Below, piece after piece: positions 929 through 53,791 of a stretch of DNA of 64,000 nucleotides. The translations under genes and the position numbers were made by a program. Each line of letters opens with the position of its first letter. The first letter of the stretch is position 1. The stretch lies in NCBI GenBank assembly GCA_015179025.1, contig WHUX01000027.1:186001-250000 (forward strand). The letters are read 5' to 3'. Below the pieces are notes generated by a model. The model made no database searches. It was not told the DNA's origin and worked only from the letters and a program-made list of their open reading frames with translations. The DNA comes from Terfezia claveryi (taxonomy: Eukaryota > Ascomycota > Pezizomycetes > Pezizales > Pezizaceae).

Positions 929-973
929 ACCGTGTCGCACAGGAGGGTGGTGCCAACCAGCCTAACCGTGTCG
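929..973. mobile_element. Partial TAGTCTGG mini-element with 9-bp target duplication
   Basis: The 9-mer accgtgtcg occurs at 929-937 and again at 965-973. Between them lie 27 nt (938-964) ending in the family terminus, here GTGCCAACCAGCCTA. One terminus is intact against one direct repeat and the other terminus is missing. A related fragment (gcaaccaggcta) lies just upstream at about 916-927. Confidence 0.75.
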
Positions 974-1091
974 GAAACTGTAGTGGTCTTAATGAGGAAG
1001 CCACTACTATAAGGAGACTAGCATAATCATAACTTGGCACCGGCGATCGCATTGCTACAGTTCTCTGCCACAATCTGCAAGCAAATAACAG

Positions 1092-1158
1092 GGGTATAAC
1101 TAGTCTGGTTGGCACAACACCAAAGGAGGGTGTTGTGCCAACCAGACTAGGTATATCG
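1092..1158. mobile_element. Complete hairpin member of the TAGTCTGG mini-element family
   Basis: Positions 1101-1149 form a near-perfect 49-nt inverted repeat. It begins TAGTCTGGTTGGCACAACAC, has a short AAAGGA loop, and returns as the reverse complement ending CCAACCAGACTA. Flanks ggtataac and ggtatatc resemble a decayed target duplication. It is one of the best full-length references for the fragments listed elsewhere. Confidence 0.75.
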
Positions 1159-1159
1159 A

Positions 1160-2380
1160 TGACTTATAACTAAGAGAAAAATCCACCGAAGTTACTTATC
1201 GCATGAGATTCAGTTAACTACGAAACGAATGCGATAAAACACATACGAGTGTGTTTTCGTTCCTGACTATTCATTCCCGGATACTGTAGGTCTGAATATG
1301 ATCTTACTACGGCTCGGATAGTAGAGATCCATCAGTACTCTATGGCTCAATTGATCCTAGAAAGAAATAAAAGTGGAAAATTTAGTGATAAGTCGAGTGG
1401 TGGGAGGGGAAGACTGGCATGTAGTGAGGTAATTTAAGAAGGTTCAGTGCCAAACTATCAATATAGGTGCTTATCTACTTCTCGAGACTGATTATCTACT
1501 AAACCTCCGGTTCCATTGTATTCATGTTGGGAGCTGGTTGGTTGATTGGTAGTGTAACAGCTTCTACAGACCCCTTGGCCTAGTCTGGTTTTGTGAGAGA
1601 AAACATATGAAGTGTAAAGCTGTACCTATTGTTCTAGCAAGATGTGCTTGTGAGCATTCGAGAAAATTGTGCATTTACCGTGAATCGCATATACATTCAC
1701 ATTAATCGTAATCATCTTAACACTCACCAGCATAGGCCTAATTGCACGTGTATTTACCCCCTTAAATTTAGAATGCATTGAATAGATAGATTGAGTTTTC
1801 TCCTGCTGTAAGTATAATGAGGTTTCATATTACTGCATATATAGTATGGTAGAGCTTCGCCCTCAAACTAAGTACATACTTTGATAACGTAACTTATTTA
1901 TGACGATTAATAATCAATTGAACCTTAGCTTAGCCGTTAATCTAATCTGGCTTCAATGCAAGCTAAGTAGGCACGATCCTACCTAAATACAGCATTGACT
2001 ACCGCAATAAGTCTGGTGCGGGTGATTGCATTAAGCTTGGCATTCGTTTACTCAACTAGGGCAGAGGCTGACATATCCATCTCGTGTTAGGGGGGCAAAG
2101 TTCAGTACATCGCGGCTTTTTTTTTTTTTTTCTTAAGAAATATGCGGCTCCAGTGACGAGCCAACCACGTACGTAGAAGTTAATCTGCGCGACCGATGGA
2201 AGAGAGAAATGAACGCTATGACCCCGATAAAACGTCTCGCAAGTGGGAAATGAAAGACAGCAAATGTGGAACATCCTCATCGGGAATGGGAAAATCCTCA
2301 ACAAAACTTATTGTGAAATAGGGGAAATACAAGCTTGCGTATACACAGTATTCTGTTGTGCGGAAGAAACGAGTTCACTT
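1160..2380. other. Intergenic, nothing recognised
   Basis: AT-leaning sequence without an open frame or repeat that I can support on either strand. Confidence 0.5.
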
Positions 2381-2600
2381 TGTTTTGAGGTCCATTTCTC
2401 TTGGGCGCGGTTCAGTCTCAGGCCCTCGGTCATGGGATCATACCCTTTAATGACAGCACGGTACCCCGCCCCCTCTTGAGTTATTTGTATCTAGCGCGGA
2501 TCTGGCATATTAACTTGCCTTTTCCCTGAATCCACCCGGATTTCCCGATGCTCCTCATGGCGGAGTAACAAGTATTTATTTTTTTTCTTTTATATATAAA
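2380..2600 (+). mobile_element. LINE-A 3' tail, 5'-truncated
   Basis: This matches the 3' untranslated tail of the LINE at 61357-64000. It has a 'ctcaggccctcggtcat...taatgacagca' segment, then 'ggcatattaacttgcc', the CCACCCGG...CCCGATG hairpin zone and 'gagtaacaagtattta' before an A/T-rich run. No coding part remains. The poly(A) is degraded to mixed T/A, so the insertion is old. Confidence 0.65.
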
Positions 2601-2617
2601 AAAAATGTGGGTAACGA

Positions 2618-2909
2618 CAGACTGTGATAAGGATTGATAGTGGCCGTGGTAGAATATCTTGGCATCACATGACCCACCGAGTGCAGTACACGGATTTGGC
2701 TCGCGTGGACATACGTAGAGACTCGAGTTATTCGGTAGCGCTATCACATACATACATATGCAACAGACTGTGATAAGGATTGATAGTGGCCGTGGTAGAA
2801 TATCTTGGCATCACATGACCCACCGAGTGCAGTACACGGATTTGGCTCGCGTGGACATACGTAGAGACTCGAGTTATTCGGTAGCGCTATCACATACATA
2901 CATATGCAA
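2618..2909 (+). repeat. Tandem duplication, 2 x 146 bp
   Basis: The unit starting cagactgtgataaggattg at 2618 is repeated at 2764. I see no difference over 146 bp, so the duplication is recent. The unit includes the left inverted repeat of the element at 2866-3320. Confidence 0.9.
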
Positions 2910-9203: not shown

Positions 9204-9405
9204 AACCTGCACGTTGACTATTTTATATGTGGGGAAGGGCCGGTAGGGGCGTGGTGGGAAGTGTGGTTATTTCGGTAGTATGGATCTCCTTGGTTCGGGA
9301 AGGCAGGGTGTTTACGCACTCCGTTGTTCCGTGGAGGTACTGAGCCTGTAAAGTTGAGGGAGCGGGGCCGCCTCATAGCCTTAGGCTCCACAGACGTATA
9401 GACTT

Positions 9406-9448
<43 letters not shown>

Positions 9449-10961: not shown

Positions 10962-10994
10962 GTGAACATGGTGCCAACCAGACTAGTGAACACG
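10962..10994. mobile_element. 15-nt footprint of the TAGTCTGG mini-element
   Basis: GTGCCAACCAGACTA (10971-10985) lies between gtgaacatg and gtgaacacg, an 8/9 match. Confidence 0.65.
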
Positions 10995-11200: not shown

Positions 11201-11504
11201 GGAGTACCGTCTGTACACGTCTGATGAAAAATGCCGATTCTTTCTAGTCTCGACCGAGACTAGATTCTTTCTAAATTTAACGCCATTTGTTTCAGCCATG
11301 TAAATTTACCTCCCGAAAACAAATTATATATTCATTCGACTTCCCCCCAGCTCCGTAAGCTTATGAAATTCACACCACAACAACTTCACGCCGTCGCGAT
11401 TGCGCAAGGTCAACCATTACATGTTGGACGAGTCTTCGTAAACTAACCAATCAGCGCAGCGAAACCAGGTTGCCTCAACACCGCCACTATTGATGGAAGT
11501 GGGA

Positions 11505-12574: not shown

Positions 12575-13118
12575 GAAGCAGAGTCTCGCTCAATCAAACT
12601 AGGTCCCGGTTCGATGTTTCATCTTATTTCGCCCGTATCTTCAAGTTCTACCAACCTCAAAGATCCAGTTACACGTTTCTATTATCGGAAATTATAGGAC
12701 TCACTTTATAACGGGTTTTCATAGTCTTGTTGGAGTTTTCATACAGTTTAGGATAAAAGTTATCTTTCATCGTTTTCTAGATTTTCGTTTATAAGCAATA
12801 GCGGATGGCCTTGCAGTGCCAATTAGACAAATTATGGTGCTGAATTGACTCCTTCTACAGACCACATAGCCCCTCTCATGATCAGTCAAGCACGAGTGTT
12901 TTCCTAGTTATGAGTATGGGGACATAGAAACCAGGTATAAGGTTGAATGGAATAGCAGTTAGTTGTATAGGGAACATCAACATATTTCTTTTGGAATGGC
13001 ATTCGCATTGATGTAGGATATGGTATTCATGCTGATAGTTATTTGCCTTGATATGCGTGCTCGCATCGCGTATTAACATTGTTATGTTTAAGAATAATAA
13101 GCTCGTCATGACGAGCCC
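12575..13118. repeat. Dispersed 0.55-kb repeat, copy 1
   Basis: Aligns in the same orientation with 23599-24163 over its full length, with scattered substitutions and small indels. Landmarks shared are gcagagtct, catcttatttcgcccgtatc, agttttcatatagttta-like sequence, cacgagtgttttcctagtta and the palindrome GCTCGTCATGACGAGC at 13101-13116. No clear product is encoded. It could be an LTR or a non-autonomous element. It carries an internal TAGTCTGG-family footprint at 12715-12743. Confidence 0.7.
12715..12743. mobile_element. Footprint inside dispersed repeat copy 1
   Basis: gttttcata is repeated on both sides of GTCTTGTTGGA, a degenerate piece of TAGTCTGGTTGGCAC. The same event sits at the equivalent site in copy 2 (about 23760-23785), so it is older than the duplication. 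Confidence 0.6.
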
Positions 13119-13189: not shown

Positions 13190-13960
13190 TTGAATGCCCC
13201 CCCCCCTCCAATCATATACTGTGGTGCAGAAGAGTCTCCTTCCCATGCGCAGCCCTTGGTCAAGGTTGATACTCTCTTTCATGTGGATGACCAGCGATGA
13301 CGTCAGCTTTCCAGCTCTCCTGTGTTCTTGCATTAACAGCGAATTCCCGAGATTTGAACTCCAATTGCTTTCGATCCAGCGTCGCATTTGGCCTGGCTTG
13401 AATTTTGTAGGTGCTGCATGTAGGACCAGGGTTCTTGCTAATATGGGAGGTGATGTTGATCTCGTGTGAACTCCTTGTATCCGGGTGGTGGATTGGGTTG
13501 TTGGTTCTTGTGAGTTTGCCTTGGAGCGTTTTTTCGGATTGTTCGGAGGGTTCGGAGGTTATGCCGCTGCCGCCAGGCTTTTACCCTTTACCTCTAAAAC
13601 CGACTGTTTCTTTGCGGATCCGGTCGCTGCCTCTGCGTATGTAGGTGCCGGTGGTGTCCGTGTTAGTGGAAATGCTGTTAGTCTGTGCTGTGGTCGGAGG
13701 TGTGGTCTGGATGCTAGTATCTATGGTGGTCTGTAGTGGTGGCATTTGTTCAGCCCTGTCATCCTTCTCTCCAGCAACTTAACCACCTCATTCCTCAGCC
13801 GGTCATTTTCCCTCTCTACTCGTTCCCGTTCTCCCTTCGCTTCTGTGACCTCGTCAGTTGAGGGGGGATGCACATCGCCGACTATTACAATCGAATAGCC
13901 TGGTTGGCACCCAATCGAACCCTCATTTATTGGTCCTGCGGCTTGTGCCAACCAGACCAA
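13190..13960 (-). pseudogene. Possible decayed coding region, coiled-coil type
   Basis: On the minus strand a segment near 13850-13750 reads GERERVERENDRLRNEVVKL, a clear coiled coil. It is followed by Thr/Gln-rich sequence and, in another frame after a stop, a longer polar stretch to about 13200. No catalytic motif is seen. The layout could be a LINE ORF1 remnant, but I did not recognise it. A footprint of the mini-element (13887-13919) interrupts its start. Confidence 0.3.
13887..13919. mobile_element. 15-nt footprint of the TAGTCTGG mini-element
   Basis: TAGCCTGGTTGGCAC (13896-13910) lies between acaatcgaa and ccaatcgaa, an 8/9 match. More family ends follow at 13945-14012, including TAGTCTGGTTGGCACATGCG...GCAACCAGACTA. 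Confidence 0.65.
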
Positions 13961-14019: not shown

Positions 14020-15110
14020 GGTAACATCCGACCAGCTTCCAGAGGGGCTGTTCAAGCCAGTCTACGACCAGCTATGGGTCCCGAGACTCGGGTTATTCGC
14101 TGGCATAATTTAACCAGACTAGCGTAATTTCAATTTGAGTCCCGACACAACCTCGCCTCCAGTTCTCATCCAAACCTAGATCCAAACCTACCTATTAGAG
14201 AGGTTTTGGTCCCCTGTAAGAGTGACGGTTACTAGCACACACTAAATGCAACTGCTGGGCAGGGGTAAAAGATATCAATACGATATCTTTTGCTATGTCA
14301 GATGTCAATGGAATATCTTTTGTGCTTCTTGGTGTTATCTTTAATAGCGAATCCCTTTATAGGGTTAGATCGTTCACTTGGCCTCAGATATTCTCCTATT
14401 CGGGCGGCAATCATTGTCAGAAACATATATGCCTATCATATCGTAGGTATTCAAGGCATTCAAGTATCCCCTATCCCTCATCTACCTTTTCTTCTCGTAT
14501 GCAATTGGAGCTCGATATTGTGGTACGACATCATCATCACCGGAGATATCTGCTGCCGACACTGGTATACTGAGATTAGCACTACCCCACATGACCATAG
14601 TATCCGTAGTTTGGATCCGCCATATCTGCGTATTTTTGTTGCACGTTGATGATTACTAAAGGAGAAGGCAACAAGAGATATCATGGAATTCCAAAACCTC
14701 TTTTTTTGGCAATTTGGTGCCTACTGGAGTCTAAGTGTTGCGACATGGGTTGAAGAGTTGTCATTCTTACAGGGGACCAAAACCTCTCTATTATTGGCGT
14801 GCCAACCAGACTACCTATTGGATAGTCACTAGCCCCTCCTCGTTCCGAGGGGTTGTGCAACCACTGATCGAGACTGGTTCCAATCAGACTAGAAGCCAAC
14901 TCAATAACATTTCCCAGTTTTTGCTTTTGGCACATCGCCATTATCTTCGGATCTCGATCACGATGCGAAACAATCATCGCACAATCTGAATTTTATTACG
15001 TATATAGTTAGCGTACGTACAAGCTTGGCATGCCTCCTTAAGTATTTAAACAATAGAGTTAAGAAATACGACCTTAACCAACATACCTTAATTCGCCGCG
15101 ACCTTTTGAG
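14020..15110. other. Intergenic with mini-element ends
   Basis: GTGCCAACCAGACTA occurs at about 14799-14813, and further family-like ends lie at 14850-14892. No gene recognised. Confidence 0.45.
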
Positions 15111-22195: not shown

Positions 22196-22227
22196 TCGAG
22201 CAAAGTGCCAACCAGACTTCGAGCAAA
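22196..22227. mobile_element. 14-nt footprint of the TAGTCTGG mini-element
   Basis: GTGCCAACCAGACT (22205-22218) is flanked by a perfect 9-bp direct repeat, tcgagcaaa. Confidence 0.8.
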
Positions 22228-22308
22228 GGCCCCAGACATTGTCCCGAAGTCTGCTAGTGTCAACTGCAGCTGCCAATTAGGTCTCTAAGAGAGGCTTGTG
22301 CCAACTAG

Positions 22309-22339
22309 CAATCAGGGTGCCAACCAGACTACAATCAGG
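22309..22339. mobile_element. 15-nt footprint of the TAGTCTGG mini-element
   Basis: GTGCCAACCAGACTA (22317-22331) is flanked by the perfect 8-mer caatcagg. A longer half-element (ctctaagagaggcttgtgccaac) lies immediately upstream at about 22283-22305. Confidence 0.75.
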
Positions 22340-22889
22340 TAGGGAGTAGTGTTCCCAACGAGACCAAGGTGATGAAGTTACCCAAGGTTTACAGCGTTTG
22401 GCAGTGCAACCGGACAGCTAACCTGACAAGGTTAACTAACTCACCTGCGCTTGACTCAATGTTGCTCACATTCCTCAGTTTCCTAGCATACAGAGCTTTA
22501 CTATTAAATCCATTTAGACCTTGCGCTCACTGTAAGATAAGTGTACATGTCTAGAATATTCACTGTACGTTCCTTTCTTCATTTCTTCTACGTAACTTAC
22601 CATTCTGACCGCCAACGCCCCACCCAGGTTAGCTGTCCGGTTGGTGCCTGTATCGCAGCAATTGCAACACACTATGTAGTCGGCACCGTCCCTCACGAAT
22701 GAGAACGGGGCCTACATCATAATATGCTAGCGGTGTAAAAAAACAATCCACGCTTCCGCATTGCCTTTTGGATACATTGTCTATGTAGTATTCAAAATCT
22801 CAATACAATGCTAATGCTGTTCGAGAACGAATAGCAGGTGGGGCTGCCAAGCTCTTGACTCTCCTGTGGTAAAATATACCTGACTTAAG

Positions 22890-25739: not shown

Positions 25740-27120
25740 GAATGCGCCTAAAATAAAGTTCTCAGCACACCAAGATTAGACTTCCCGCAATAGCCTACTA
25801 GAACTATTCGAGTATTTTCCAACCTCTGCCTTACCAAAGCAACCTAAGCCCGAAGTGAAACTCGGTAGTCGGTTGGAGGTAGTCTCGGCCCAGACCTCTG
25901 TTAAGGGTTGGAGGTTCTAGCTGTCTTACATTTCATAAAAGCCGAATCCCCTCCAAACACCCCAGTTACAAAGCCGACGCAAGCACGAGCCACACAGCTT
26001 CAACAAAGTGCAAGCCTGGTCAGATGTGCTGCTGGATCGAGGAAGATAAACAACGGGAGAGCCCAAATCCTGGGAAGAACCTCTAAGAACTCGAGCATTT
26101 AATTTGTACTTTTCAACTTCAGTATTGTAAATAAATTTACATCCGCGTCGTTTTATTTCTTGGAAGTAGCATTTATTTTTCTCTGCCGACCGTGCAGATT
26201 AAACATACGAGCAATGAGTATTTTAGTAGGATGTTTTTTTCTTTTGTTTAAAAAAAAAAAAAGATTAGCCGGAAGCGGACACACGGTAAGCTGACCTAAA
26301 GTCCGATTGAATCTAATATATAAATAAACACATAATATGAACACAAATTCAAGGTAACGGGTATAGTGAATGTGCATTTCAACATTACCACTATGTTACC
26401 GGTAATCTCTAGAGCATGTTACCGGTAATCTCTAGAGCTTTAAATTATAGATTTTCTTTCATATACCTCGATTCCACTGACAAACAACACAGTACTGGTA
26501 TTTATATTTAAGCTAAAAGGATTACAAAAAAATGATGAAAAGGAATCTCAGGAATATGCATGTTCCAGCTTTCTTGAGAGGTTCTTCTCCTATCTCTTTT
26601 TCCACCTCAATAGAACCCTCAGCCCCCTACGAATTAATGGGGCCTGCTAAAGAGGATTTAAGAACTAAACCAAATCCACAGGCTGTGTAAACACAATATT
26701 ATCTAGAACTATCACACCATACCGGTAGTGATACAGAGATGCGAACCTGAAGTAACTCTAGAGCTGGATCATATAGTAGGAACTAATGTGGATTTTAGAG
26801 ATTTCGGAGGAATTTAGTACCGGACCTTGGCTCCAAGGGCGTCTCTTTAAGCGCATTTTTTGTTTCTATTTGTTTTTGAAAATATATATTCACTAAGCAT
26901 ACTTCGTGCCTATATAATAAGCATATGCAAACTGAAATGACCAAATTGCTTGAGACATGCTCAAGTAGTTTCGTTGACTTAGATAGTAAGACAGGCTTTT
27001 GTTCCTTTAGTTTGTCTCGACCGTCTTGTAGTAGGATCAAGAATGTACAGGTAAGTCTATGGAAAGTTACATTTGTGTGGCGGTCTGTAATGTGCGAAGC
27101 AGGCTCAATAGCTATCAGAA
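25740..27120. other. Intergenic with a small direct repeat
   Basis: atgttaccggtaatctctag... is repeated with a 23-bp period at 26393-26438. No gene recognised. Confidence 0.5.
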
Positions 27121-32394: not shown

Positions 32395-32423
32395 CCTGAA
32401 GCATAACCAGACTACCTGAAGCA
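32395..32423. mobile_element. 11-nt footprint of the TAGTCTGG mini-element
   Basis: TAACCAGACTA (32404-32414) lies between two perfect copies of cctgaagca. Other family ends are at 32269 and about 32366-32382. Confidence 0.8.
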
Positions 32424-32602: not shown

Positions 32603-32631
32603 GGTGTGGTGTAGTCTGGTTGGGTGTGGTG
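32603..32631. mobile_element. 11-nt footprint of the TAGTCTGG mini-element
   Basis: TAGTCTGGTTG (32612-32622) lies between two perfect copies of ggtgtggtg. Confidence 0.75.
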
Positions 32632-33790: not shown

Positions 33791-33999
33791 TTGATTTTAG
33801 TTTGTCTAGGGAGTTTTTAGGCTCTATGCACAGTACATGACGCAACTGAAAAAATTTTTGTGTGTGATGAGGGTATGCCTAGTGGGAAATGCTGCGGATC
33901 TAGCTGAGAATTTTCTCTCTGTTTCATGTTACCGGGGGTAGGCTACCTCCACAGTCGGTGGGTCGTGCAACCAGACTAGAAGTACAGGTCACAGTCTAT

Positions 34000-34340: not shown

Positions 34341-34344
34341 ATTC

Positions 34345-34377
34345 AAGAATCCCTAGTCTGGTTGGCACAAGAATCCC
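34345..34377. mobile_element. 15-nt footprint of the TAGTCTGG mini-element
   Basis: TAGTCTGGTTGGCAC (34354-34368) lies between two perfect copies of aagaatccc. Confidence 0.85.
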
Positions 34378-34498
34378 TAGATTCCGATTGGCTGCAGCCA
34401 GTGTTTTTATTCAAACCTAAATAGCACAGATGCGGGAGAAAAATCTTTTCTATCGGTAGCAAAAAAAAAAAAGTAAAAGGCTATACTCCGAAAACAAG

Positions 34499-34505
34499 TA
34501 TAAAA
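34499..34505 (+). promoter_or_regulatory. TATA box candidate
   Basis: TATAAAA, about 100 bp before the ATG at 34601 and 68 bp before another ATG at 34567. Confidence 0.4.
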
Positions 34506-34600
34506 CCCCCAGCGTAAAAATACCCACAGGTTATGATTCTCTATTTTACATCCAACAAGAATCGGAATGTCTCGACAAATACCTGTCCGCCGTCGCTATT

Positions 34601-35064
34601 ATGGCAATATTTCGAACCAGGAACACGTGCAACACTAAGATTGGATTTGTACAAAATACAACAGATATTCGTGGACGTGGGAAGCTGATAATTCAGCGGA
34701 GGCATGGCAGCCGCTATGCGAAGTGTCTAGATTTGGAGGTTGGAGAATTCTGGATCAAGCGAGGTAATCGCAAAAAATTCTTGGGCGCTTATTTCTGACA
34801 AACTACGAGGTCATACGGAATGGTGAAGTGCAGGGAAATGAGCTATCGGTCGACGCTGATGCATTTGTCGATAATGACTTTCATCACCATCTGTGCTTCA
34901 GGCTGGTTGGCGGAGAATCGGACCCTGTAGAACCTCCTGATGGAATCCAACGCAATACCCCCCCCTCCCCGGCGTATGTCGACGCATTGCATAGTCACAT
35001 GCTCCACATGCGCTCTCTCGGTTGGGTAGCCTCTCACCCACGCCGCATAATTAATTCTCACTGA
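34601..35064 (+). CDS. Possible small two-exon gene, unknown function
   Basis: Exon 1 (34601-34763) and exon 2 (34829-35064) join in frame if the 65-nt segment 34764-34828 is an intron (GTAATC donor, ctgac branch-like site, AAG acceptor). The product would be 132 residues: a basic N-terminal half (RGRGKLIIQRRHGSRY) and an acidic, His-containing second half (DADAFVDNDFHHHLCF). A TATA box lies at a suitable distance upstream. The acceptor is not a preferred CAG/TAG, and no paralogue or domain supports it, so this is tentative. Confidence 0.35.
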
Positions 35065-35857
35065 TAGAAGTACTGGGTATTTAAAAAAGGGTAGGCAGTT
35101 TCAGTACTGCCTACACCTCTCCCGTTCCTCATGGCCTTCTTACGGAGACCGAAGAGGGGTATTTTCGGTTTTTTTTTTAAAAAAAAAAAAAAAAACACCT
35201 CCCGTTATACCCCCAGGATCCTCTCCCTTGCACCACAATAAGTCTCTCTATTCCCTTCCAGGACCTCGCCTTGGCTGACATCGGGAGTTGGTTGTGGGTT
35301 TCTTTAGCTTGAGACTATTAGCTTTTTTTAAATTCTTTTTTTGTTGTAAATCAGTACTCGTATTTGGGCTAAGTACCTATTACGAGGCGCGCATCCCCCT
35401 GCGGTACTCTCGTACCCAGACCCTCGGCCTGCGGAGGCAGAGCTGGATGATCCCTCCCCGGGCTGCACCAGCCCTATCCTTCCCTTATTTATTTACAAAG
35501 GTAAGTGAGCATGAAAAATCAATGTAGGTACTTATAGACCTCCGCGTACCATTCCGAGTTATCCCAGATTCCATCCCATCTCCTGTCTTTCACATCCCTA
35601 ACCCTCTCGCGCCTTAAGACGTGTGCTGCATTTTGCGCCTCCCCGCAGACGCTTGTTCGGTTGTTTGCTTTGGATGCGGTTGTTTGCTTTGGTTGCAGCG
35701 GAGCGCGTGCTCCGATATCGATCGCTGGTACGCGAATGCGCAGCTAGGGCCGTAATTACCTTGGCTAATCGCTTGCTGAAATGTAGTGGTCACTTCCTTT
35801 GTTGTGGCATTAGAAGGGGAAGAGGGATTATAAGTTGGTACCTATAGCTCGAGGAAT

Positions 35858-35945
35858 TTCGATCTTTGCTTACGGTAGTCCTGAATCCACTCGGGCTCAC
35901 GGTGGCTCATCATGGTCCACTGAGTTTTTTTTTTTAAAAAAAAAA
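35858..35945 (+). mobile_element. LINE-A tail fragment
   Basis: tcctgaatccactcgggctcacggtggctcatcatgg (in part) followed by an A/T run. Only the last 85 bp of the tail remain. Confidence 0.6.
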
Positions 35946-35949
35946 GCTC

Positions 35950-36700
35950 GTCTGGTTGTGGCCTTTTACGGTCGATCCTTGTATTCTGATTTGCCCTGGC
36001 TGTAGCTGCGTGGAGTAGGCTGTAGCGGAGTTGGTAGCAACAGCCAAAGTGGAGCTCTGTCCTCGGAAAGTAAGTACAAGTAAGTACATTTAAGGCCCTA
36101 ATCCTCATGGTCAAAGTGTTGGTTTCTGGGTTGCCATTGATGGGGACTGCTTCTGCGTCTTCACGCTGTCCTGAATACAGTTTCTGTATCTTCCAGCTGG
36201 GCTCCATTTCCATTGGTTTGGGCAAGGCCAAGCTTATAGTTGTGCCTCTCATTCCGGGCTTGGGCTGTTGGGTATCAGATATTTGTACAAGGGCATAGGT
36301 ATTCGGTTAAATTGCATCCAGAAGAACTTGGTAATCCTTTTATCTCAGTGCGGTTTACTGGCTATGGACCCAGCCTGCTCTGATGTATGACAAGGACCTC
36401 AGACAGGACCCATAGAGCAAGGCATGCTCAAACATAAAGGGCATGTTTTCGGTGTGTTGCGACGCCACCAAGTTTGTTGTCAAGGCCGGTACGAGCACTA
36501 GCACAGCCAAATCTGTGCTTGTGCAACAAGTATAAGCATATATTCTGTAGAAGTCCAACAAACGTCAGGGAAGGCTAATAGGTAACATACCTCGACTCTA
36601 CCAGTAGCCATGCAGTAAGGCATGTTCCACTGAATACGAGGTCTGCAATTTGATCAGCGTCGGTGTGGTACTCGTATCCCACTGTGCTCGCGGCAAGGTG
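35950..36700. other. Intergenic, nothing firm
   Basis: A 136-codon minus-strand frame at 35842-36252 runs partly through the LINE tail and lacks support. Confidence 0.4.
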
Positions 36701-36708
36701 AAGTACAG

Positions 36709-36765
36709 CCGTGTGGGTAGTCTGGCTTTAAGGAGGGGCTAGTGCAAGCCAGACTACCGTGTGGG
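36709..36765. mobile_element. Complete 39-nt mini-element with perfect 9-bp target duplication
   Basis: The element 36718-36756 begins TAGTCTGGCTT and ends AAGCCAGACTA, a perfect 11-bp inverted repeat. Perfect ccgtgtggg copies abut it on both sides. It shows that the family inserts with a 9-bp duplication. Confidence 0.9.
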
Positions 36766-36768
36766 AGG

Positions 36769-36798
36769 GTTCTGAATTAGTCTGGTTGGGTTCTGAAT
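36769..36798. mobile_element. 12-nt footprint of the TAGTCTGG mini-element
   Basis: TAGTCTGGTTGG (36778-36789) lies between two perfect copies of gttctgaat. It begins only four bases after the complete element. Confidence 0.8.
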
Positions 36799-36926
36799 AT
36801 GAGTTAGTCATGTGTATGGAGACCTTATATATGGTATTACTAACACGAAGTGGTTGGATGGCAGTGGTGCTTGTACTTCTGCGGCCTCTTGGCCGTGTCT
36901 AAAGTCTGGTGGCCTTGGGAAATCTA

Positions 36927-36959
36927 GTTACCCTCTAGTCTGGTTGGCACGTTACCCTC
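36927..36959. mobile_element. 15-nt footprint of the TAGTCTGG mini-element
   Basis: TAGTCTGGTTGGCAC (36936-36950) lies between two perfect copies of gttaccctc. Confidence 0.85.
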
Positions 36960-37069
36960 TCCGTTTGCTGGTTTGCCTTGCCAAGCCCCGTGCCACTCCG
37001 CTTCTCAAGCTGATGTGGAGATATAGATGTATACAGATTGGCAAAGCAGGAAATAGGAGTACGGCGAGG

Positions 37070-37163
37070 GGTTGTGCCAACCAGACTAAGATATACTTAG
37101 TCTGGTTGGCATAGTCTGGTTGGCACAACACCCTCGTAGGTATATACCAGACTAGGTATATAC
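37070..37163. mobile_element. Nested mini-element cluster ending in a 7-nt footprint
   Basis: GTTGTGCCAACCAGACTA, then two head-to-tail TAGTCTGGTTGGCA units, then CAGACTA (37148-37154) between two perfect copies of ggtatatac (37139-37147, 37155-37163). Confidence 0.75.
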
Positions 37164-37375
37164 CAATTGTGCCAGTCCGGATGCGAGATCGTGTCATTCA
37201 TGATAGTCTCGTGCCCAGACCCTATTCATGATGGACTCACGTAAGCCGCTCAATCTCGTCTCGGCAAGCCCTTATCGAACAAAATCCAGCAGTCTCGTGG
37301 GCAGCAGTTCGGAAGTGTTAGGGCTACAACCCTGCCCTGTGACGCACCAAAGGCGATTGCTTGGCACCACATAGA

Positions 37376-37382
37376 TATAAAT
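37376..37382 (+). promoter_or_regulatory. TATA box candidate for the repeat-exon gene
   Basis: TATAAAT about 240 bp before the ATG, followed by a C/T-rich leader (ccacccttcccctccacctt), a common fungal promoter arrangement. Confidence 0.4.
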
Positions 37383-37615
37383 CGGTTTCCACAACATTCC
37401 ACCCTTCCCCTCCACCTTCCTCCCGACACAGACAAAACAAACCAAAACACACCGAACTCGAACCCCCCACTGCTTTCTCACAACTCTACAATCTTTCGTC
37501 TGCCCGATCTACCTCCAGATCTAAATCTCTTCTTTCTACAGCTTCTGCTCTCCCCATACTTTCCCTTCGCAAAACACACTCCTCCACGTCGACTGTTTCT
37601 TGAAACAAGTCTCAA

Positions 37616-40600
37616 ATGTCTACTATGCCAGGAGACGGCATTTTACCGTTCGTCCAATACATCCTCCGCATGCGTGCGGATCTGGATAGGATTATCAATG
37701 CGCTTCAGAAGCAAGGTTTGCTCGATGAAATGCCGACGACTCTGTCCCAGACTCCCCAGCAGTCAATGTTTGTTATCCCCACTCCTAGCCTCAGCTATTG
37801 CTAATATTAATGCATCGAACAGTGATACGGGTGCGATGAACATTGAAACTGTCCCAGGCACAATCGAAGCCTCTATCGAAGCCTCTATTAAAGTGGCTGA
37901 ACAGATCGCCCAGGTGTCAATGTTTGTTATCCCCAACTCCTAGCCTCAGCTATTGCTAACATCGGAGCATCGAACAGCGACATGGGTGCGATGAACATGG
38001 AAACTGTCCCAGGCGCAATCGAAGCCTCCGTCAAAGTGGCTGAACAGATCCCCCAGGCGTCAATGTTTGTTATCCGCAACTCCAAGCATCAGCCTATTGC
38101 TAACATCAATGCATCGTATAGCGACGCGGGTGCGATGTCCAAGGAGACTTTCTCAGGTGCAATCGAGGACTCCATTAAGGCCGAACAGAGCCCCGAGCAG
38201 TCAATGTTTGTTATCCCTAACTCCTAGCCTCAGCTATTGCTAACATCGATGCATCGAACAGCAACATGGGTGCGGTCACCATGGAAAGTGTCCCAGGCGC
38301 AATTGAAGCCTCTATTAAAGTGGCTGAACAGATCCCCCAGGGGTCAATGTTTGTTATCCCCAACTCCTAGCCTCAGCTATTGCTAATATCAATGCATCGA
38401 ATAGCGACGCGGGTGCGATGATCAAGGAGACTTTCCCAGGTGCAATCGGGGACTCCATTAAGGCCGAACAGATCCCTGAGCAGTCAATGTTTGTTATACC
38501 CAACTCCTAGCTTTAGCTGTTGCTAACATCAATGCATCGAACAGCAACATGGGTGCGGTCAACAAGGAAACTGTCCCAGGCGCAATCGAAGCCTCCGTTA
38601 AAGTGGCTGAACAGATCTCCCAGGTGTCAATGTTTGTCTCCCCAACTCCTACCTCAGCTATTGCTAATATTAATGCATCGATCAGTGATACGGGTGCGGT
38701 CAACAAGGAAACTATCCCAGGCGCAATCGAAGCCTTCATTAATGTGGTTGAGCCAACCGCTCAGCAGTCACTGTTAGTAGCCCCAACCCGGAGCGTCCTT
38801 CTGAGTGTCTAAGATTTTTACTAATACCAATGCATCTAATAGCTACTCAAGTGATATGAATATCCAGCCTGCCCCTGGCGCAATCAGAGACTCCATTAAA
38901 GTGGCTGAGGAGTTTGTCACTCCATCTGTCCAACAACTCCCCGTTGTAGACGGCGAAATCATTGGAGACCTTGCCATGCCATTGGCTTCGTCTTTGACCA
39001 TTGGCGAGGCTTTTCACTCTCAAACAGAGGCGGTTGATTCTCAAATTGCACTTACCATGGCAAAGAGCAATGCCGCAAATTCAATCAGCGGAATCGGTAT
39101 TACGAACGACAAGTTCAAAATCTTGCCTACTTCGGCTCCCCAACTTGAATCGGCTACTGCGCACTTGCAAATCTTGGAAACAAATAGCACAGTCCCATCT
39201 GGAGCACCTATTGCAGATCAAATGCCATCTGGAGTTGGCTCTTTTACCGCGTCTGGCACTCCGCTTACTGCTTTGCCTCCTTCCATTCAATCTCAAAGCG
39301 CTATGACCAAGGAGCAGATGTTCCTTGAGTCAGAAGAATTCAAGAAGCTACCACCTCATCTGAAGGCGATTCATAGAAAGAAGGCAGCTGAATCACGACA
39401 GGGATCAGGGGATGTGACTCCGCAAAGTGGATCTGTTCCTGGATCTAATGCTTCTTCCCCGGAAATGAAGCCACAGTATCAAACCTCTATGACTAAGGAG
39501 CAAATGTTCCTTGAGTCGGAAGACTTCAAGAAGCTACCACCTCATCTGAAGGCGATTCACAGAAAGAAGGCAGCTGATTCACAACTGGGATCTGGGGATG
39601 TGACTCCGCAAAGTGGATCTGTTTCCGGATCTAATGCTTCTTCCCCGGACATGAAGCCACAGTATCAAACCTCTATGACTAAGGAGCAAATGTTCCTTGA
39701 GTCGGAAGACTTCAAGAAGCTACCACCTCATCTGAAGGCGATTCGCAGAAAGAAGGCAGCTGAATCACAAATGGGATCTGGGGATGTGACTCCGCAAAGT
39801 GGATCTGTTTCCGGATCTAATGCTTCTTCCCCGGACATGAAGCCACAATCTCAAATCGCTATGGCCAAGGAGCAAATGTTTCTTGAATCGGAGGACTTCA
39901 AGAAGCTACCACCTCATCTGAAATCGATTCACAGGAAGAAGGCAGCTGAATCGCAGCCGAGTTCTGGGCCTGCATCTCCGGAAAGAGGATCTGCCTCCGG
40001 ATCTAATATTTCTTCCCCTAACATGGTGCCACATGTCTCCACCTTTCAGGTACAAACACAATCCGCATCGACCACGATTAGAAGAAAATTCCCCACGTTA
40101 CAACTCTATACTCCCCCACACTTGAGAGGTCCAAAGGCGAACATAGCTGACGGTTTGGGGGAGCTGCCATTGGCTAATGCCATTATTTCCCCAACCCCAC
40201 CTGTTCCCGAGTCTAACGGTTCCAGCCTTGGATCCCAGGAGAGAGAGATATCCGACATCGATATTACCAATATCCCTCCACACTTGAGGCATAAGTACTT
40301 CAAGAAAGCGACCCCACCGGAAAAACCTCAACTAACCAAGGTGCCATTGGTAGGTGGCAATGCCTCACCACCTGCTATGGATTCCAATAATCCCACCTCT
40401 AGGTCGTATTTGCGGCCAATTTCCCCACTCACTCTGAATGGACAAACGTCTACCGTGCTTGGGAATGTCTTGGATCCCAATGATTGTCAACCTGGATTAT
40501 CATCTTCCTCTGCATCCTCTATCCAAAAACCCCACAATAGTGGCACTGATTCTAGCGTTAAAGTGGTATCAGCTGCGGTTTACCCTCGTGGTTTCTTCAG

Positions 40601-42296
40601 TCAGCAACCCCCTCCAACAGATGGGCGTCCTGTGAGAACCTTGTGGGAAGAGACCTGTTCCTTCATTATTCCCGAATCCAAGGAACCAAAGAAAGCCCAA
40701 TCGATGTCACCACTGGATGTTCCCTCCACTGATCAGATTGCGAGAGCAGTCGACATCGGTGCGATTTACTCTGCTACTGCCAGGGCGAAACGGACTGGCG
40801 TTGCGGCCGATGATATCGCTGCATTAATTGGAGCACGAGAGCAGTAAGTAGCTTTCTCACACTAAGAACTATTAGACTTTCAGACTGACCTGGTGTTTTG
40901 CAGTGCCAACGAATGGCTTCCGAAATCCTCTCCCGATAGCGATAGCAGTGACACCGCTAGTTCAGTGAGTGATGGGTCAAACCAGAAGAATACCCCTGGA
41001 GATACTTGGCAGGAATTCGTTAAAGACATTAATGGGCCAAACCCACGTCGAGGACGAGATCTGAGGCGGTCACCTGCCAACCAGCTTGCAGCCCAAAAGT
41101 CTTCTCCAACCCAAAAGCCTAGGCCAATTCAGAACTCTAGCCCAGTTCAAAAGTCTACCCCAATTCAAATCTCAACCTCAGTCCAAAAGTTTATCTCAGT
41201 CCAAAAGTCTACCCCAATTGAAAATTCTCATCCAGTTCAGGTGTATGAAGGGAAAGGTTTCCCGTCAGTTGAAGGAAAAGTCTCTGGCACTCCTAAGGGA
41301 TGGGGTGTTGGAACTGCATTGAGCACCATTGTTCCAAAAGCACAAATTCAAAAAACTACCACTTCCATTAACACGCATGCCGCGACTCCCGTTGAACCAA
41401 GCGCCAGTGCCAAATTGGTGCAAAGCATTATCCCCACCATACTTACAGCTCCTAATACAACATCCCCTATCGGAAATGCGGATGTTGTTTTTCCGACTGC
41501 CCCTAACACGGTATCTCGCCAAAAAGCAGCCGATATGGAAATCAATCTAAGAGCTTGCGGAGGTTTGACACAATATCGAACAGTCAATCCCTCTCTTAGA
41601 GATAACCTTGTTATAGATGCTTCCGTCAGGGCCCCGCATAACACGTATCACAAATTTCAATACAACGAACAATCTCATAAAAAGTACCAGAAAAATCAAT
41701 ACAATGGACAATCGTATGAAAAGGAGACTTACCCTTCGATTTCCGGATATGTTCCTGATGCTGTGGATTTTGTTGAAAGAAATCCTATCAATGAACCTAG
41801 TATCGCAGTCACCACCAATGCCAATAGGAACACGAAGCCAACAATAAACCAGGTCGAAAGTGCAGTGTTAATCGAGACAAAGGGAAAATTGGCCACGACT
41901 GCCGCGGTCGTAGCTATATGCAAGTCAAATAATCTAACCCTCAATCCTACGATGCTTATTCGGTCGATTCCATCCTACGATGACAATCACATCGAGGAAA
42001 CCCTGAAACAGAGGCCTCGTGTCCGAATCCCACAGACAGCACCTTTCCCAGCCCCAAAGTTGAATACTCAAGGATATTTTATTGAGTCGCAGGCCCAGCC
42101 TTCACACTTTGCGCGGGTAAACCATATGATGGTGCAGGTACCACCTCATATGAGAGCCCGAGCAAATTTGGAGCACGGATATGTTGACGGTGACTATCAG
42201 TTGGTGAATTCTAATGCTGGGGTTGCAGGACCTAAGCTGGATGGAGCAAATTGGGAGTTTGCTCAAACCAGGGATAGTATGATGGCAGTTGCATAA
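37616..42296 (+). CDS. Ten-exon gene with tandemly duplicated exons, 1386-residue repeat protein
   Basis: Exons: 37616-37767, 37823-37921, 37978-38064, 38122-38205, 38262-38348, 38405-38488, 38545-38631, 38686-38772, 38843-40843, 40904-42296. All nine introns (54-70 nt) are phase 2. Introns 1-7 have a GTTTGT donor, intron 8 GTTAGT, intron 9 GTAAGT; branch sites are gctaac, gctaat, actaat or ctgac. Spliced length is 4161 nt, with no stop before the end. Exon 1 encodes a helical 50-residue N-terminus. Exons 2-8 encode 28-33 residue repeats of the form GAxxxETVPGAIEASIKVAEQ. Exon 9 holds four 62-residue repeats (MTKEQMFLESEDFKKLPPHL), then PPHLR motifs; exon 10 has QKSxPI repeats and a PPHMR. 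The protein is mostly polar and probably disordered, with no known domain, signal peptide or membrane segment. Function unknown. Confidence 0.82.
37768..38842 (+). repeat. Tandem exon-plus-intron repeats of about 140 bp
   Basis: Seven intron-exon units plus a diverged eighth, each starting at caatgtttgtta and containing tcagctattgctaa, gcatcga and gaaactgtcccagg. Exon lengths alternate 87/84 in units 3-6, and unit types alternate (NMGA.../DAGA...), so pairs of units were copied together. Confidence 0.88.
39303..40046 (+). repeat. Four 186-bp coding repeats
   Basis: Units start at ATG codons 39303, 39489, 39675 and 39861, exactly 186 bp (62 codons) apart. Units 2 and 3 are nearly identical; unit 4 is the most diverged in its second half. 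Confidence 0.9.
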
Positions 42297-50680: not shown

Positions 50681-50960
50681 TGTCTAACTTAGTCTGGTTG
50701 GCACAAGCCGCTCGTAGTGTCTGACTAGTGCTTTTATGTTGCGAAGTAGGTAAGTCGTGTTGGAGGGGGGGGGAATGAGGGATATGCCAAGATTTAATGC
50801 GCTACAGAATCAGATAAGAGCATAGATGTGGTATGAATAGGCAGATACTTCGAGAACAATGCCGGACTCAAACGTATCTAGAGATACACTGTAGTCTGGT
50901 TGGCACAAGCCTCTCGTAGAGAAGAATGAGGGTACTCTGGTTGGCACGACCCTTGGTAGA
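50681..50960. mobile_element. Three partial TAGTCTGG mini-elements
   Basis: At 50690-50717 a 28-nt left half (TAGTCTGGTTGGCACAAGCC...) lies between tgtctaact and tgtctgact (8/9). Two more left halves start at 50892 and 50934 (ACTCTGGTTGGCACGACCC). Confidence 0.6.
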
Positions 50961-51093: not shown

Positions 51094-51187
51094 GGCACAG
51101 TGGTCTAATAGTATGATTCCTGCTATGTAGGTTCCTGCTGATTCAAGTAGAGGGCAGGTGATCTGGGTTCAATTCCCAGCTGGGCCA
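51094..51187 (+). tRNA. tRNA-like sequence 2, anticodon unclear
   Basis: Same family as 48835-48929, with an altered A box (taatagtat). The upstream 75 bp (ggtactt...aggcagcacaag.ttatgagttgca) are shared with copy 1, so a larger unit was duplicated. Probably a pseudogene. Confidence 0.45.
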
Positions 51188-51433: not shown

Positions 51434-51721
51434 GTGGAGGCCAAGAATGCTGATAGCAATACCGTACGGATATCACTAGGAGAACCTGTCAGAATTTGTC
51501 AGTTCCAGAACAACTCCTGTCATCTAAAACACCTTCCACAATCCTATAACAGCCTCGGCCGCCCCTTGCCGCATCTATATACAAATAATCTATGTTGCTA
51601 CTTCATCAACCATCGCATCCTGCGTTCTACGATGCCACTTCCTTGCCTTTGTTAATATCAATACAGCATCGCCTAACTAACAGCATTCACAACCGACAAC
51701 TCCAGCGCCACAATTCAGTCC

Positions 51722-52420
51722 TGTTTTTTTTTTTTTTTTTTTTTATATACTCATTACTCTTATTCGGTCCCAGTAAAGGGACCATGAAGAGCCACCCGGA
51801 AACCCGGGTGGATTCAGGACAAGGCAAGTTAATCTGCCAGGTCCGGCGCGCAGAAAGCAATGAAGATAGATACATGTGTGAAGAAAAAGTGAGCAGAGAG
51901 CCTCCATACTGTCATTAACCGCCAATGGCAGATGACCCCGAAGGGCCTCACTGAGGCAAGAAAAGAACGAGATGTGTGAAAAGAGCAAACGAAAAATGCG
52001 AGACGAAAGCTTGTGTAAGGAGACTCGTGAAAATGCTACCGACCAGCTAAGGTCAGCCCATCCTAGCGTGAATGGATATTCTGCCAGCTCCCGACGGCGA
52101 CGGCATCTCCTGTATGTCCGTCTCATCTGCCGCCTCCTCTCCCGACCAACCATCTATATACGAAGCTGAAGAAAGCTTCCACTGCGTCCCAATCGTCCCC
52201 GTCCTTCTCTTCTACCCATATTTGGGAATCTAGATCTTCCCAGTCTTTGATGCTACCCAAGGCCTGTCGTTGAGCTGAGAGAAGGGGGCAATTGAACGTT
52301 ATATGTACCCCGTCTTGTGTGTGATGTCCGCATGGGCAGCTGCTTGAGTCTGCTTTACCGATCTTGTGGAGCCAGGAACGCTGGGGGCTTCAGTCCTGGG
52401 GTGACTGCTGCCAAACTCCG
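51722..52420 (-). mobile_element. LINE-A, 5'-truncated copy with protein C-terminus
   Basis: The T-run at 51725-51744 is the poly(A) of the minus strand. Next come the tail with its hairpin (51775-51810) and coding sequence to about 52400. That sequence reads PQRSWLHKIGKADSSSCPCG, then HHTQDGVHITFNCP, matching PQRSWLHHIGKAESAACTCG...HIVFDCP in the copy at 61729-63015. It is therefore an independent copy of the same LINE. Confidence 0.8.
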
Positions 52421-52429
52421 CGAGAGGCC

Positions 52430-52840
52430 AAACAGCTCCTGTGACACAGCTTCTAACCTTAACAAAGAGGCAGGGAGAGTAATGCGGGTGATACCGACAG
52501 CAACGAAGGGTTGCCATTGCCCTAAGGTGCTGGGGGTAAGATACTGGGAATCTCGCCTCCAACTGAGCTTTCGCCTACATATCTACGAGCGTATTAGGAA
52601 GGCTGCTACCGTTGCTGACTTACTCAGGAGTCTGGCTCACAGCAGGGGCGGAACCGGTCCCAATGCTGCCTGTGCCCTATACACAGGCATAATATCCATC
52701 TTGACTTTGGGAGTGGAACCATGGCACGGTCAAACACAAACGCCTCGAAAACAAGATATAAGACTAGCACGCATAAGGAGAGTCGAATAACAGGTCCTGC
52801 GAAGAATTACAGGTGCATATCATGGTAGCAGACACTTTAA
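52430..52840 (+). pseudogene. Fragment of a different LINE reverse transcriptase (thumb region)
   Basis: The plus strand reads LGVRYWESRLQLSFRLHIYE, RIRKAATVADLLRSLAHSRG, then ALYTGIISILTLGVEPWHG and, after a frame change, ITGAYHGS. The order LGVxxDSRLxFxxHI...LYxxxxxxLxxGxExW is the thumb region of fungal LINE reverse transcriptases. It lies head-to-head with the LINE-A copy. The catalytic core is absent. Confidence 0.6.
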
Positions 52841-52849
52841 GCTAAGCTA

Positions 52850-53750
52850 CATCGCGGGAGTTGGACTTCTGGAGGGCAAATTGGACAACATATCTTCCTG
52901 TTGGGTACCCAGTGAAGAATTATGTTCTTCGTGTGTTCGCGGGTGAAAGAGTAGTACTTATATTCGTATACTGTAAGAGAAGCCGCTTGCTTGGTTATTA
53001 CATGAAAGTAAGGAAATCCGTCCGTCTTAAATACCCTACTGACCATTCCAAACATCCAAGCATAGAAACCCTTAACCGCCCACATCTCACGTCAGCTTAT
53101 CCTGCCGTCAGCCTATTACCCTTTCTCCAACACCCAGCGTAATCAAAAAGAAGAACCCGGTAATAAAGGGCCTCATTCACACAGGCTTCCAAGAGAACTT
53201 TCCAATTAGCAAGTGTCATACCGAGCGAGTTATCCTACGGGGATGGCTTATGTTACCGACAAGCGACAAGCGAATCTGCAAGATGTCAGCCTGTTCGACC
53301 CACAGATGATTGTTCGAACCACAAAGTATTTGGCCACCAAGATCCTCGAACGCTTTGAAGAGGGTTGTAGAGTGGTATATACTCTGTACAGGTGGTAGCG
53401 GCAGAGGCAATCAGATGGCGGTAGACCTGGGCATGAGATAAGATGAAAATCTTTCATTGGCTGAGACATGGAGATACATATCTGGGATAGGATAGCGAGT
53501 TAGAGTATGGTTATGATTGTGTTGGGTGCTCGATGTCCAAATATGTTATTCATGGAGTCTCAGTTTCTAGAACTCTCCCGTATTTTGCCTGTCAACCCGT
53601 ATGTGGGGGTGGGATAGCTTTTTGAGGGAGACCCCTGCCAGCCCAACCGTTCAGTACAATTGCATAATAGAAGAATAATGGACCTACTATGTCTCCATAA
53701 AAACCAGGTGATAAAGTAGAAAGACAAAGGAGGTCTTAACCCGATCTGGT
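52850..53750. other. Intergenic, nothing recognised
   Basis: No supported frame. The sequence of short minus-strand frames near 53216-53469 has no support. Confidence 0.4.
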
Positions 53751-53758
53751 GATCAGTT

Positions 53759-53791
53759 CATACCCTGTAGTCTGGTTGGCACCATACCCTG
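53759..53791. mobile_element. 15-nt footprint of the TAGTCTGG mini-element
   Basis: TAGTCTGGTTGGCAC (53768-53782) lies between two perfect copies of cataccctg. Confidence 0.85.

What the first reader, a model, noticed from the sequence alone, without database searches (positions are those of the whole stretch)
929..53791. Uniform 7-28 nt footprints of a mini-transposon, each between 8-9 bp direct repeats
TAGTCTGGTTGGCAC or its complement occurs over 30 times. At 36718-36756 a complete 39-nt element has perfect 9-bp target duplications. At about 14 other loci (929, 10962, 12715, 13887, 22196, 22309, 32395, 32603, 34345, 36769, 36927, 37139, 50681, 53759) only one terminal piece remains, still bracketed by the 9-bp (once 8-bp) repeat. 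Six pieces are exactly the terminal 15 nt. Ordinary excision leaves a few bases, and ordinary decay would not stop at the same base. This suggests either a fixed cleavage within the element or hairpin-mediated deletion. A 9-bp duplication points to Mutator-type transposases (established for that superfamily; assignment here is inference).
Basis: partly seen in the sequence, partly recalled or inferred. Interest (0 to 1): 0.88.

Follow-up and report, generated by a model that had tools for sequence, protein, structure and literature searches.

The report
One-ended scars of palindromic mini-transposons
A desert truffle genome carries thousands of copies of the end of a tiny hairpin-shaped jumping gene, many of them scraps of 6 to 34 bases still between the 9-base repeat made on landing, and the scraps come in two preferred lengths that may show how broken ends are cut and repaired.

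Summary
All 14 listed loci hold a terminal piece between direct repeats: 10 perfect 9-mers, 4 with one mismatch. 'Over 30 times' holds only for the 8-mer TAGTCTGG; the exact 15-mer occurs 15 times in the window and 2,885 times in the genome, reversed control 0. The host is Terfezia claveryi or very close. The duplication is fixed at 9 bp. Lengths are bimodal: on contig C1, 45 of 92 readable TAGTCTGGTT sites keep a duplication; 21 enclose 6-15 nt, 0 enclose 16-24, 24 enclose 25-40, 16 of these one-ended. The short class stops at base 15; where it could be placed (29 pieces), the long class ends near the hairpin loop, mostly 0-6 nt past it. Two-ended forms look like two pieces joined. Best reading: excision and repair scars of 34-53 nt palindromic elements moved by a 9-bp-duplicating, probably Mutator-type, transposase. 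One-ended insertion is not excluded. Mutator transposases occur here and two complete elements make 9-bp duplications, but none seen has these termini.

The parts
929..973 (-). 27-nt one-ended piece 938-964 (TAGGCTGGTTGGCAC...), duplication ACCGTGTCG
   Evidence: perfect 9-bp repeat
1093..1157 (.). 49-nt two-ended palindromic element 1101-1149; imperfect 8-bp duplication; same 49-nt element at another place (L155) with perfect ATGTGTGCC
10962..10994 (-). 15-nt piece 10971-10985
   Evidence: 9-bp repeat, 1 mismatch
11236..11271 (.). 18-nt perfect palindrome TAGTCTCGACCGAGACTA 11245-11262, duplication GATTCTTTC
12715..12743 (+). 11-nt piece with the terminus TAGTCTTG; register ambiguous by 2
13887..13919 (+). 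15-nt piece 13896-13910
   Evidence: 1 mismatch
14029..14073 (-). 27-nt piece 14038-14064 of another subfamily (TAGACTGGCTTG...), duplication CGACCAGCT
14103..14130 (-). 10-nt piece 14112-14121
   Evidence: 1 mismatch
22196..22228 (-). 14-nt piece about 22206-22219 (register ambiguous by 1)
   Evidence: perfect repeat
22309..22340 (-). 14-nt piece 22318-22331
   Evidence: 1 mismatch
25871..25914 (+). 26-nt piece 25880-25905 of the TAGTCTCG subfamily, duplication GGTTGGAGG
32395..32423 (-). 11-nt piece 32404-32414
   Evidence: perfect repeat
32603..32631 (+). 11-nt piece 32612-32622
   Evidence: perfect repeat
34345..34377 (+). 15-nt piece 34354-34368
   Evidence: perfect repeat
36709..36765 (.). 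39-nt two-ended element 36718-36756 (11-bp inverted repeats), duplication CCGTGTGGG
   Evidence: matches of 31-33 nt elsewhere
36769..36798 (+). 12-nt piece 36778-36789
   Evidence: perfect repeat
36927..36959 (+). 15-nt piece 36936-36950
   Evidence: perfect repeat
37074..37163 (.). cluster: reverse piece ending 37088, then 9 bp, then 14-nt and 28-nt forward pieces in tandem, then 7-nt reverse piece 37148-37154 between GTATATACC repeats
37195..37231 (+). 19-nt piece 37204-37222 of the TAGTCTCG subfamily
   Evidence: 1 mismatch
50681..50726 (+). 28-nt piece 50690-50717, ending one base past the loop GTA
   Evidence: 1 mismatch
53759..53791 (+). 15-nt piece 53768-53782
   Evidence: perfect repeat

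Best explanation
The source elements are tiny palindromic DNA transposons (34-53 nt; subfamilies share TAGTCT at both ends and differ in the hairpin core) inserted by a transposase that duplicates 9 bp, most likely Mutator-type. The one-ended pieces are scars left when such an element is cut out and the break is repaired. Each broken end ends up in one of three states: cut exactly at the element boundary (0), or still carrying up to 15 nt (class 1), or carrying one hairpin arm plus loop (25-34 nt, class 2). If both ends are in state 0 the two 9-bp copies can anneal and the site is restored without trace; if one end keeps a piece, a one-ended scar results; if both do, a two-ended, internally altered element results. 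Shown: 9-bp duplication, one exact boundary, two length classes, two-ended forms whose lengths fit joined class 1 and 2 pieces. Inferred: that full elements preceded the scars, that a Mutator-type enzyme did it, that most state-0 breaks are restored, that class 1 marks a fixed cut or a transposase-covered end, and that class 2 marks opening of a fold-back hairpin at or just 3' of its loop.
For: Duplication length: of 340 TAGTCT sites, 62 have an exact repeat of exactly 9, against 13 of 8 and 15 of 10, the latter about what chance extension of 9 gives; four shifted controls give 1-3 of length 9. Enrichment: 73 of 137 exact 15-mers have the repeat (two of these, with 3 and 5 nt between, are overlaps), shifted controls 6-9 of 137; wider set 181 of 372, controls 10-20. 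Lengths on C1: 21 of 45 at 6-15, 0 of 45 at 16-24, 24 of 45 at 25-40; of the 24, 16 are one-ended, 7 rows two-ended, 1 composite. In the wider set 23 pieces are exactly 15, 8 are 14, 1 each 16 and 17. Class 2 ends: of 21 one-ended GGCAC-family pieces whose 5' arm could be placed by my motif rule, 19 end 3-9 nt after the arm, that is about 0-6 nt past a loop of 3-4 nt; 5 of 6 TAGTCTCG pieces could be placed and end 6-9 nt after the arm; 1 piece of the 34-mer and 2 of the 39-mer subfamily, with loops of 10 and 17 nt, end 0-3 nt past the loop. Two-ended elements of 30-60 nt: 27 of 44 distinct ones have an 8-10 bp duplication with up to one mismatch. Mutator genes, and two complete elements with 9-bp duplications, exist here. 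In yeast, Mutator-like Muta1 excises precisely in about 90% of cases when 8-9 bp duplications flank it, and without them occasionally leaves up to 13 bp of terminal repeat (PMC5225508, passages), which would explain why exact empty 9-bp duplications are only 2 in 158 kb.
Against: Two-ended survivors are few: 46 with both exact 15-mers and spacer up to 30 against 2,885 15-mers, so nearly every insertion must have been scarred. No full and scarred versions of one site were found; the one old piece that could be followed is one-ended in all 11 aligned copies of a repeat, two of which (C615, C773) are a recent duplication. No transposase gene with these termini was found. 43 of 92 C1 sites show no duplication at all. 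The sharp stop at 15 is not explained by the hairpin. Placement at the loop covers 29 of 67 rows; 34 rows could not be placed and at least one of them (24 nt, L183) ends before the loop, as does one placed piece. A direct test for a 3' fold-back stem was negative.
Confidence: 0.5

Rival explanations
1. One-ended insertion: the piece never was a full element. A transposase opens the target with a 9-bp stagger and only one terminus is joined or copied in, with the inner end set by where the template or donor hairpin stops.
For: Each validated one-ended piece has one intact terminus (the search anchor) and one truncated end abutting the duplication, like 5'-truncated retroelements; few two-ended forms; no excess of exact empty 9-bp duplications; a tandem 14-nt plus 28-nt pair in the same direction at 37098-37139 looks like restarting at a terminus.
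Against: Two-ended elements with clean 9-bp duplications exist, and the same asymmetric 40-nt element sits at two unrelated places with different duplications (L160, L161), so two-ended units may insert. A strictly fixed duplication length is typical of paired-end attack. A modest excess of near-exact empty duplications is possible. I recall no eukaryotic enzyme that does this.
Confidence: 0.25
2. Interrupted gap repair: after excision one broken end copies the sister element; copying stops at 15 nt or when the new strand folds back after passing the loop; end joining closes the gap.
For: Class 2 ends about 0-6 nt past the loop fit fold-back of a growing strand; two-ended forms with shortened or altered middles resemble internal deletions explained in this way for maize Mutator elements (recalled).
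Against: Does not explain the sharp stop at 15 nor why stops at 16-24 are missing (0 of 45). Pieces do not end in a fold-back stem more often than shortened ones.
Confidence: 0.2
3. Long staggered cut, as in P elements: the second strand is cut 14-15 nt inside the element, and the resulting overhangs are filled (15) or trimmed (0).
For: P element transposase cuts 17 bp inside its repeat (PMC7776569, passages); 15 is a sharp edge; a 15+15 element with perfect duplication exists (L009).
Against: Does not give the 25-34 nt class; P elements duplicate 8 bp (recalled), here 9; no P-type transposase domain found, though that search had no working control.
Confidence: 0.15
4. Chance or unrelated microsatellite-like decay.
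For: None beyond the 64 of 137 exact 15-mers without a duplication.
Against: Controls.
Confidence: 0.01

Closest known systems
Mutator-like elements (MULEs) and their miniature derivatives
   Same: 9-bp duplication; MULE transposase genes present in this genome, two complete elements with 9-bp duplications; partial terminal repeat occasionally left (Muta1, PMC5225508, passages).
   Different: No MULE with TAGTCTGG termini found; elements are only 34-53 nt; most copies are one-ended.
P element excision products (P superfamily)
   Same: A long stretch of the terminal repeat can stay behind because the second cut is 17 bp inside (PMC7776569, passages).
   Different: 8-bp duplication (recalled), no P-type transposase found here, no second length class (recalled).
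Stowaway/mariner footprints
   Same: Short sequence from the element's end left with the duplication (PMC4561436, abstract).
   Different: A short end remnant, against up to 15 or 34 nt here; target TA (recalled).
V(D)J coding-end or Mre11-Sae2 hairpin opening (recalled)
   Same: Break end placed a few bases off the hairpin tip.
   Different: Here the hairpin would be the transposon itself; no enzyme was tested.

Membership tests
Mutator-like element (MULE) superfamily | target duplication of about 9 bp | tested here: met
   62 exact 9-bp repeats, longer classes about as expected by chance
Mutator-like element (MULE) superfamily | termini shared with a gene for a MULE transposase | tested here: not met
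   21 PF10551 loci of about 3 kb and five extended to 7-8 kb; none seen with TAGTCTGG at its ends. Two with clear ends have other termini. For most of the 21 the ends were not reached or not recognised. One of the five (C20) was laid together in the wrong orientation and does not count.
Mutator-like element (MULE) superfamily | DDE transposase with MULE domain active on these ends | not testable with these tools
   needs an excision assay
MITE (miniature inverted-repeat element) | short, non-coding, inverted termini, target duplication | tested here: met
   two-ended forms only: 27 of 44 with 8-10 bp duplication, up to one mismatch
MITE (miniature inverted-repeat element) | both termini present in most copies | tested here: not met
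   46 with both exact 15-mers and spacer up to 30 and 18 with spacer 31-61 against 2,885 exact 15-mers
P superfamily | 8-bp duplication | tested here: not met
P superfamily | P-type transposase in the genome | tested here: inconclusive
   PF21787: no match, but none in the control genomes either
hAT superfamily | 8-bp duplication | tested here: not met
   no hAT domain search was made
SINE/LINE-type retroelement | duplication of variable length | tested here: not met
   fixed 9 bp
Interrupted gap repair product | full element at the same site in a sister strain | not testable with these tools
   no second strain held; one repeat family with 11 aligned copies gave no full form

The most novel reading that the evidence does not exclude
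The 6-34 nt pieces are inserted one-ended in a single step: a transposase opens the target with a fixed 9-bp stagger and a single terminus is joined or copied from a hairpin template, stopping either at the edge of the 15-base terminal motif or just past the loop. This would be a eukaryotic transposition mode in which only one end is needed and the products are dead on arrival.
Probability: 0.22. Interest if true: 0.88.

Novelty: new variant of a known kind. Interest (0 to 1): 0.62.

Why it matters
Thousands of terminal copies, about half of those sampled still with a clear duplication, with one fixed edge and two preferred inner edges, amount to a natural cleavage and repair map of a transposon in a fungus. 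They would let one ask from sequence alone where a Mutator-type or related transposase cuts, how hairpin-forming ends are opened, and how often both, one or no ends keep a remnant. Such short pieces are easily missed by repeat finders, so hidden insertion and excision activity may be common elsewhere (inference). With strains of Terfezia claveryi the question of scar versus one-ended insertion can be settled directly.

Tried and rejected
Search for the partner transposon: 21 Mutator-domain loci, five extended, P-type domain: none found with these termini at its ends. Of 9 KDZ-domain matches four loci were fetched; two of the four hold a single CCAGACTA and two none; their ends were not determined. 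One Mutator-like element (L029) has TAGTCTGGTTGG inside both long inverted repeats but facing outward; left as a coincidence or a distant link. Pairing of outer 9-mers over any distance among 304 termini found short elements already known, back-to-back ends, and a few matches between unrelated loci that I take as chance; no long element.

Search for full, empty and scarred versions of one site in repeated DNA: window 30500-38000 showed no long second copy of its element-bearing part (40 of 71 candidates scored; the nearby matches are a tandem repeat at its end); indel comparison of fetched copies gave tandem-repeat noise in the part of the output that was shown (output cut; one search printed a count of 0, probably wrong settings); one old piece in a repeat family is present in 11 of 11 aligned copies (two further weak matches, L207 and L208, were not aligned).

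Empty duplications: exact 9-bp tandem duplications are 2 in 158 kb, like neighbouring offsets. But repeats of 8-12 bp at a spacing of 9 number 19, against 3-12 at each other spacing from 5 to 15; at least six of the 19 are visible tandem or low-complexity repeats, so a small excess of imperfect empty duplications cannot be excluded. I had first overlooked this row; it does not change my odds, since it would if anything favour scars. Direct 9-10 bp repeats in general: 123 of 170 rows did not pass a strict TAGTCT-at-the-edge filter; some of these are the same pieces in a shifted register, the rest look like chance or nested repeats.

A test that class 2 pieces end in a fold-back stem more often than artificially shortened ones gave no advantage (23 of 55 with a stem of 3 or more; shortening by 10 nt gave 36 of 55); the loop-based measure was used instead, with arm ends placed by my own motif rule. 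Of the 67 rows, 29 were placed as one-ended pieces; 4 placed rows are two-ended elements caught one or a few bases off, and 34 rows could not be placed.

Rows dropped or biased: L024-L054 left out (tandem-rich Mutator loci); L197-L206 left out (copies of one old piece); low-complexity flanks left out. 15 of the 125 rows called one-ended are 17 nt, 19 nt or 45 nt and longer, most of the last being two-ended elements caught a few bases off; a few of the 55 rows of 22-40 nt are also two-ended. Two-ended elements were fetched on purpose, so their share is no estimate; for proportions I used C1 only. 8 of the 100 listed C1 sites were not readable.
Full report
What is there. The window is part of a 72.6 Mb genome (contig C190); a 680-aa open frame at 38805-40844 is 100% identical to a Terfezia claveryi protein, so the host is that desert truffle or a very close relative. 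The 39-nt element at 36718 has perfect repeats. The exact 15-mer occurs 15 times in the window, not over 30; the 8-mer TAGTCTGG does so 30 times.

Genome scale. TAGTCTGGTTGGCAC occurs 2,885 times and the reversed control 0 times; TAGTCTGGTT 7,569 times against 161. Of 137 distinct exact 15-mers in the window and the loci fetched by then, 73 have a 9-bp repeat with at most one mismatch within 110 nt, against 6-9 in four shifted controls. Among 340 TAGTCT sites the longest exact repeat is exactly 9 in 62 cases, 10 in 15, 11 in 5, 8 in 13 and 7 in 13, with 4 longer. The duplication is therefore fixed at 9, as expected from a paired-end attack by a DDE transposase.

Two length classes. The first 100 listed TAGTCTGGTT sites all lie on contig C1 (beyond 206 kb only the plus strand is listed); 92 were readable. 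45 have a full duplication: 21 enclose 6-15 nt (8 of them 15), none 16-24, 24 enclose 25-40; 4 more have a shortened right copy and 43 have none. Of the 24 long rows, 16 are one-ended, 7 belong to 6 two-ended elements and 1 is composite. In the wider set (372 sites, 181 with a duplication, controls 10-20) 125 rows were called one-ended; 55 are up to 16 nt and 55 are 22-40 nt, and single rows at 16, 17, 19 and 24 are about what chance gives. The related TAGTCTCG subfamily shows a similar split in 16 of 49 TAGTCTC sites: 7 of 10-14 nt and 6 of 25-30 nt, with two 18-nt rows (one palindrome read from both strands) and one of 19 between.

Where the inner ends lie. Two-ended elements show the source shape: a palindrome such as TAGTCTGGTTGGCACAAGCCCCTC-TAC-GAGGGGCTTGTGCCAACCAGACTA (51 nt, L162). 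Class 2 pieces end near the loop: of 21 placeable one-ended GGCAC-family pieces, 19 end about 0-6 nt past a loop of 3-4 nt; subfamilies with longer loops (10 and 17 nt, three pieces) also end 0-3 nt past theirs. 34 of 67 rows could not be placed. Class 1 is measured from the terminus instead: most often 15 in the GGCAC family, 10-14 in TAGTCTCG. Thus there seem to be two rulers. A simpler fold-back-stem test gave no support.

Two-ended forms. 46 elements have both exact 15-mers with a spacer up to 30; leaving out two that are copies of others, 44 were read and 27 have a duplication of 8-10 bp with up to one mismatch. Their lengths fit 15+15 (30), 15 plus 22-29 (37-44) and longer joins; this splitting is my reading. 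The same 40-nt asymmetric element lies at two unrelated places with different duplications (L160, L161), and the same 49-nt element in the window and in L155. Patterns with spacer 31-61 add 18, several of them visibly nested or composite and two pairs apparently copies. No long element with these ends was seen.

Mechanism. I favour scars of excision. Each broken end behaves as if it were cut at the boundary or kept up to 15 nt or one hairpin arm. If the two ends are treated independently, the C1 counts (37 one-ended, 6 distinct two-ended, corrected for the plus-only listing) suggest that about one sixth of ends keep a piece and about two thirds of events keep none; those would have to be repaired without trace through the 9-bp copies. 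This calculation is mine and rough. It fits the rarity of exact empty 9-bp duplications (2 in 158 kb), although a small excess of imperfect ones at spacing 9 is possible (19 against 3-12 at other spacings). It also fits the yeast result that Muta1 excises precisely in about 90% of cases when duplications are present and otherwise occasionally leaves up to 13 bp of terminal repeat (PMC5225508, passages). mPing shows the same use of the duplication in repair (PMC4561436, abstract). The 15-base edge may be a second-strand cut inside the element, as P element transposase makes at 17 (PMC7776569, passages), or the edge of a transposase-covered end. The loop edge suggests opening of a fold-back hairpin at or just 3' of its loop, or fold-back of a growing strand.

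What speaks against it. Few two-ended forms survive; no site was found in both full and scarred form; one old piece is one-ended in all 11 aligned copies of the repeat that carries it, which suggests that such pieces are inert but not how they arose. One-ended insertion explains the data almost as well.

The enzyme. Mutator-type transposases are present (21 matches). Two complete elements have perfect 9-bp duplications (L024 103-2738; C62 79709-82573) but termini CGGACTGACTC and CGGGATGCTTCC. KDZ transposases are present (9 matches). No P-type domain was found, without a working control. The link to Mutator therefore rests on the 9-bp duplication and on presence in the same genome.

Literature. 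Ten searches of the held library listed no paper, by title and abstract start, on these elements or on one-ended scars of this kind in truffles; subscription journals are mostly not held, so this is not proof that nothing is in print.

Noticed in passing
L183 1-251: Three copies of the same 9-mer CTCTATCAC with a 15-nt forward piece and a 24-nt reverse piece between them: two pieces at exactly the same target. L069, L181, L186 and L095 show second pieces overlapping the first duplication. More than random insertion would give by my rough estimate.
   Followed up: partly
window 37074-37163; L089 111-145: Back-to-back termini facing away from each other, exactly 9 bp apart (the test itself selects this spacing).
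   Followed up: no
L029 and L040: A Mutator-like element with a 575-aa open frame (L029) has TAGTCTGGTTGG in both long inverted repeats, facing outward; a 90-96% identical copy (L040) has it too.
   Followed up: partly
L024 103-207; L025 541-645: Inverted repeats of a Mutator-like element are themselves built of small palindromes such as GGACAGGTACTTTCTACCTGTCC.
   Followed up: no
L007 2418-2628; window 9287-9439: A repeat of about 200 bp with many copies (323 first-look candidates for the whole query, 40 scored), possibly a SINE.
   Followed up: no
L196 (C408) against C3: A 2.55 kb insertion present in C408 and absent in the C3 copy of a repeat with about 20 copies at 95-97% identity.
   Followed up: no
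window 51094-51187 +: tRNA gene reported by Rfam but not by ARAGORN.
   Followed up: no
C170:7489, C781:209779, C264:9744: Near-identical 82-85 nt composites, probably copies of one repeat; C264 differs by a few bases at a piece junction.
   Followed up: no
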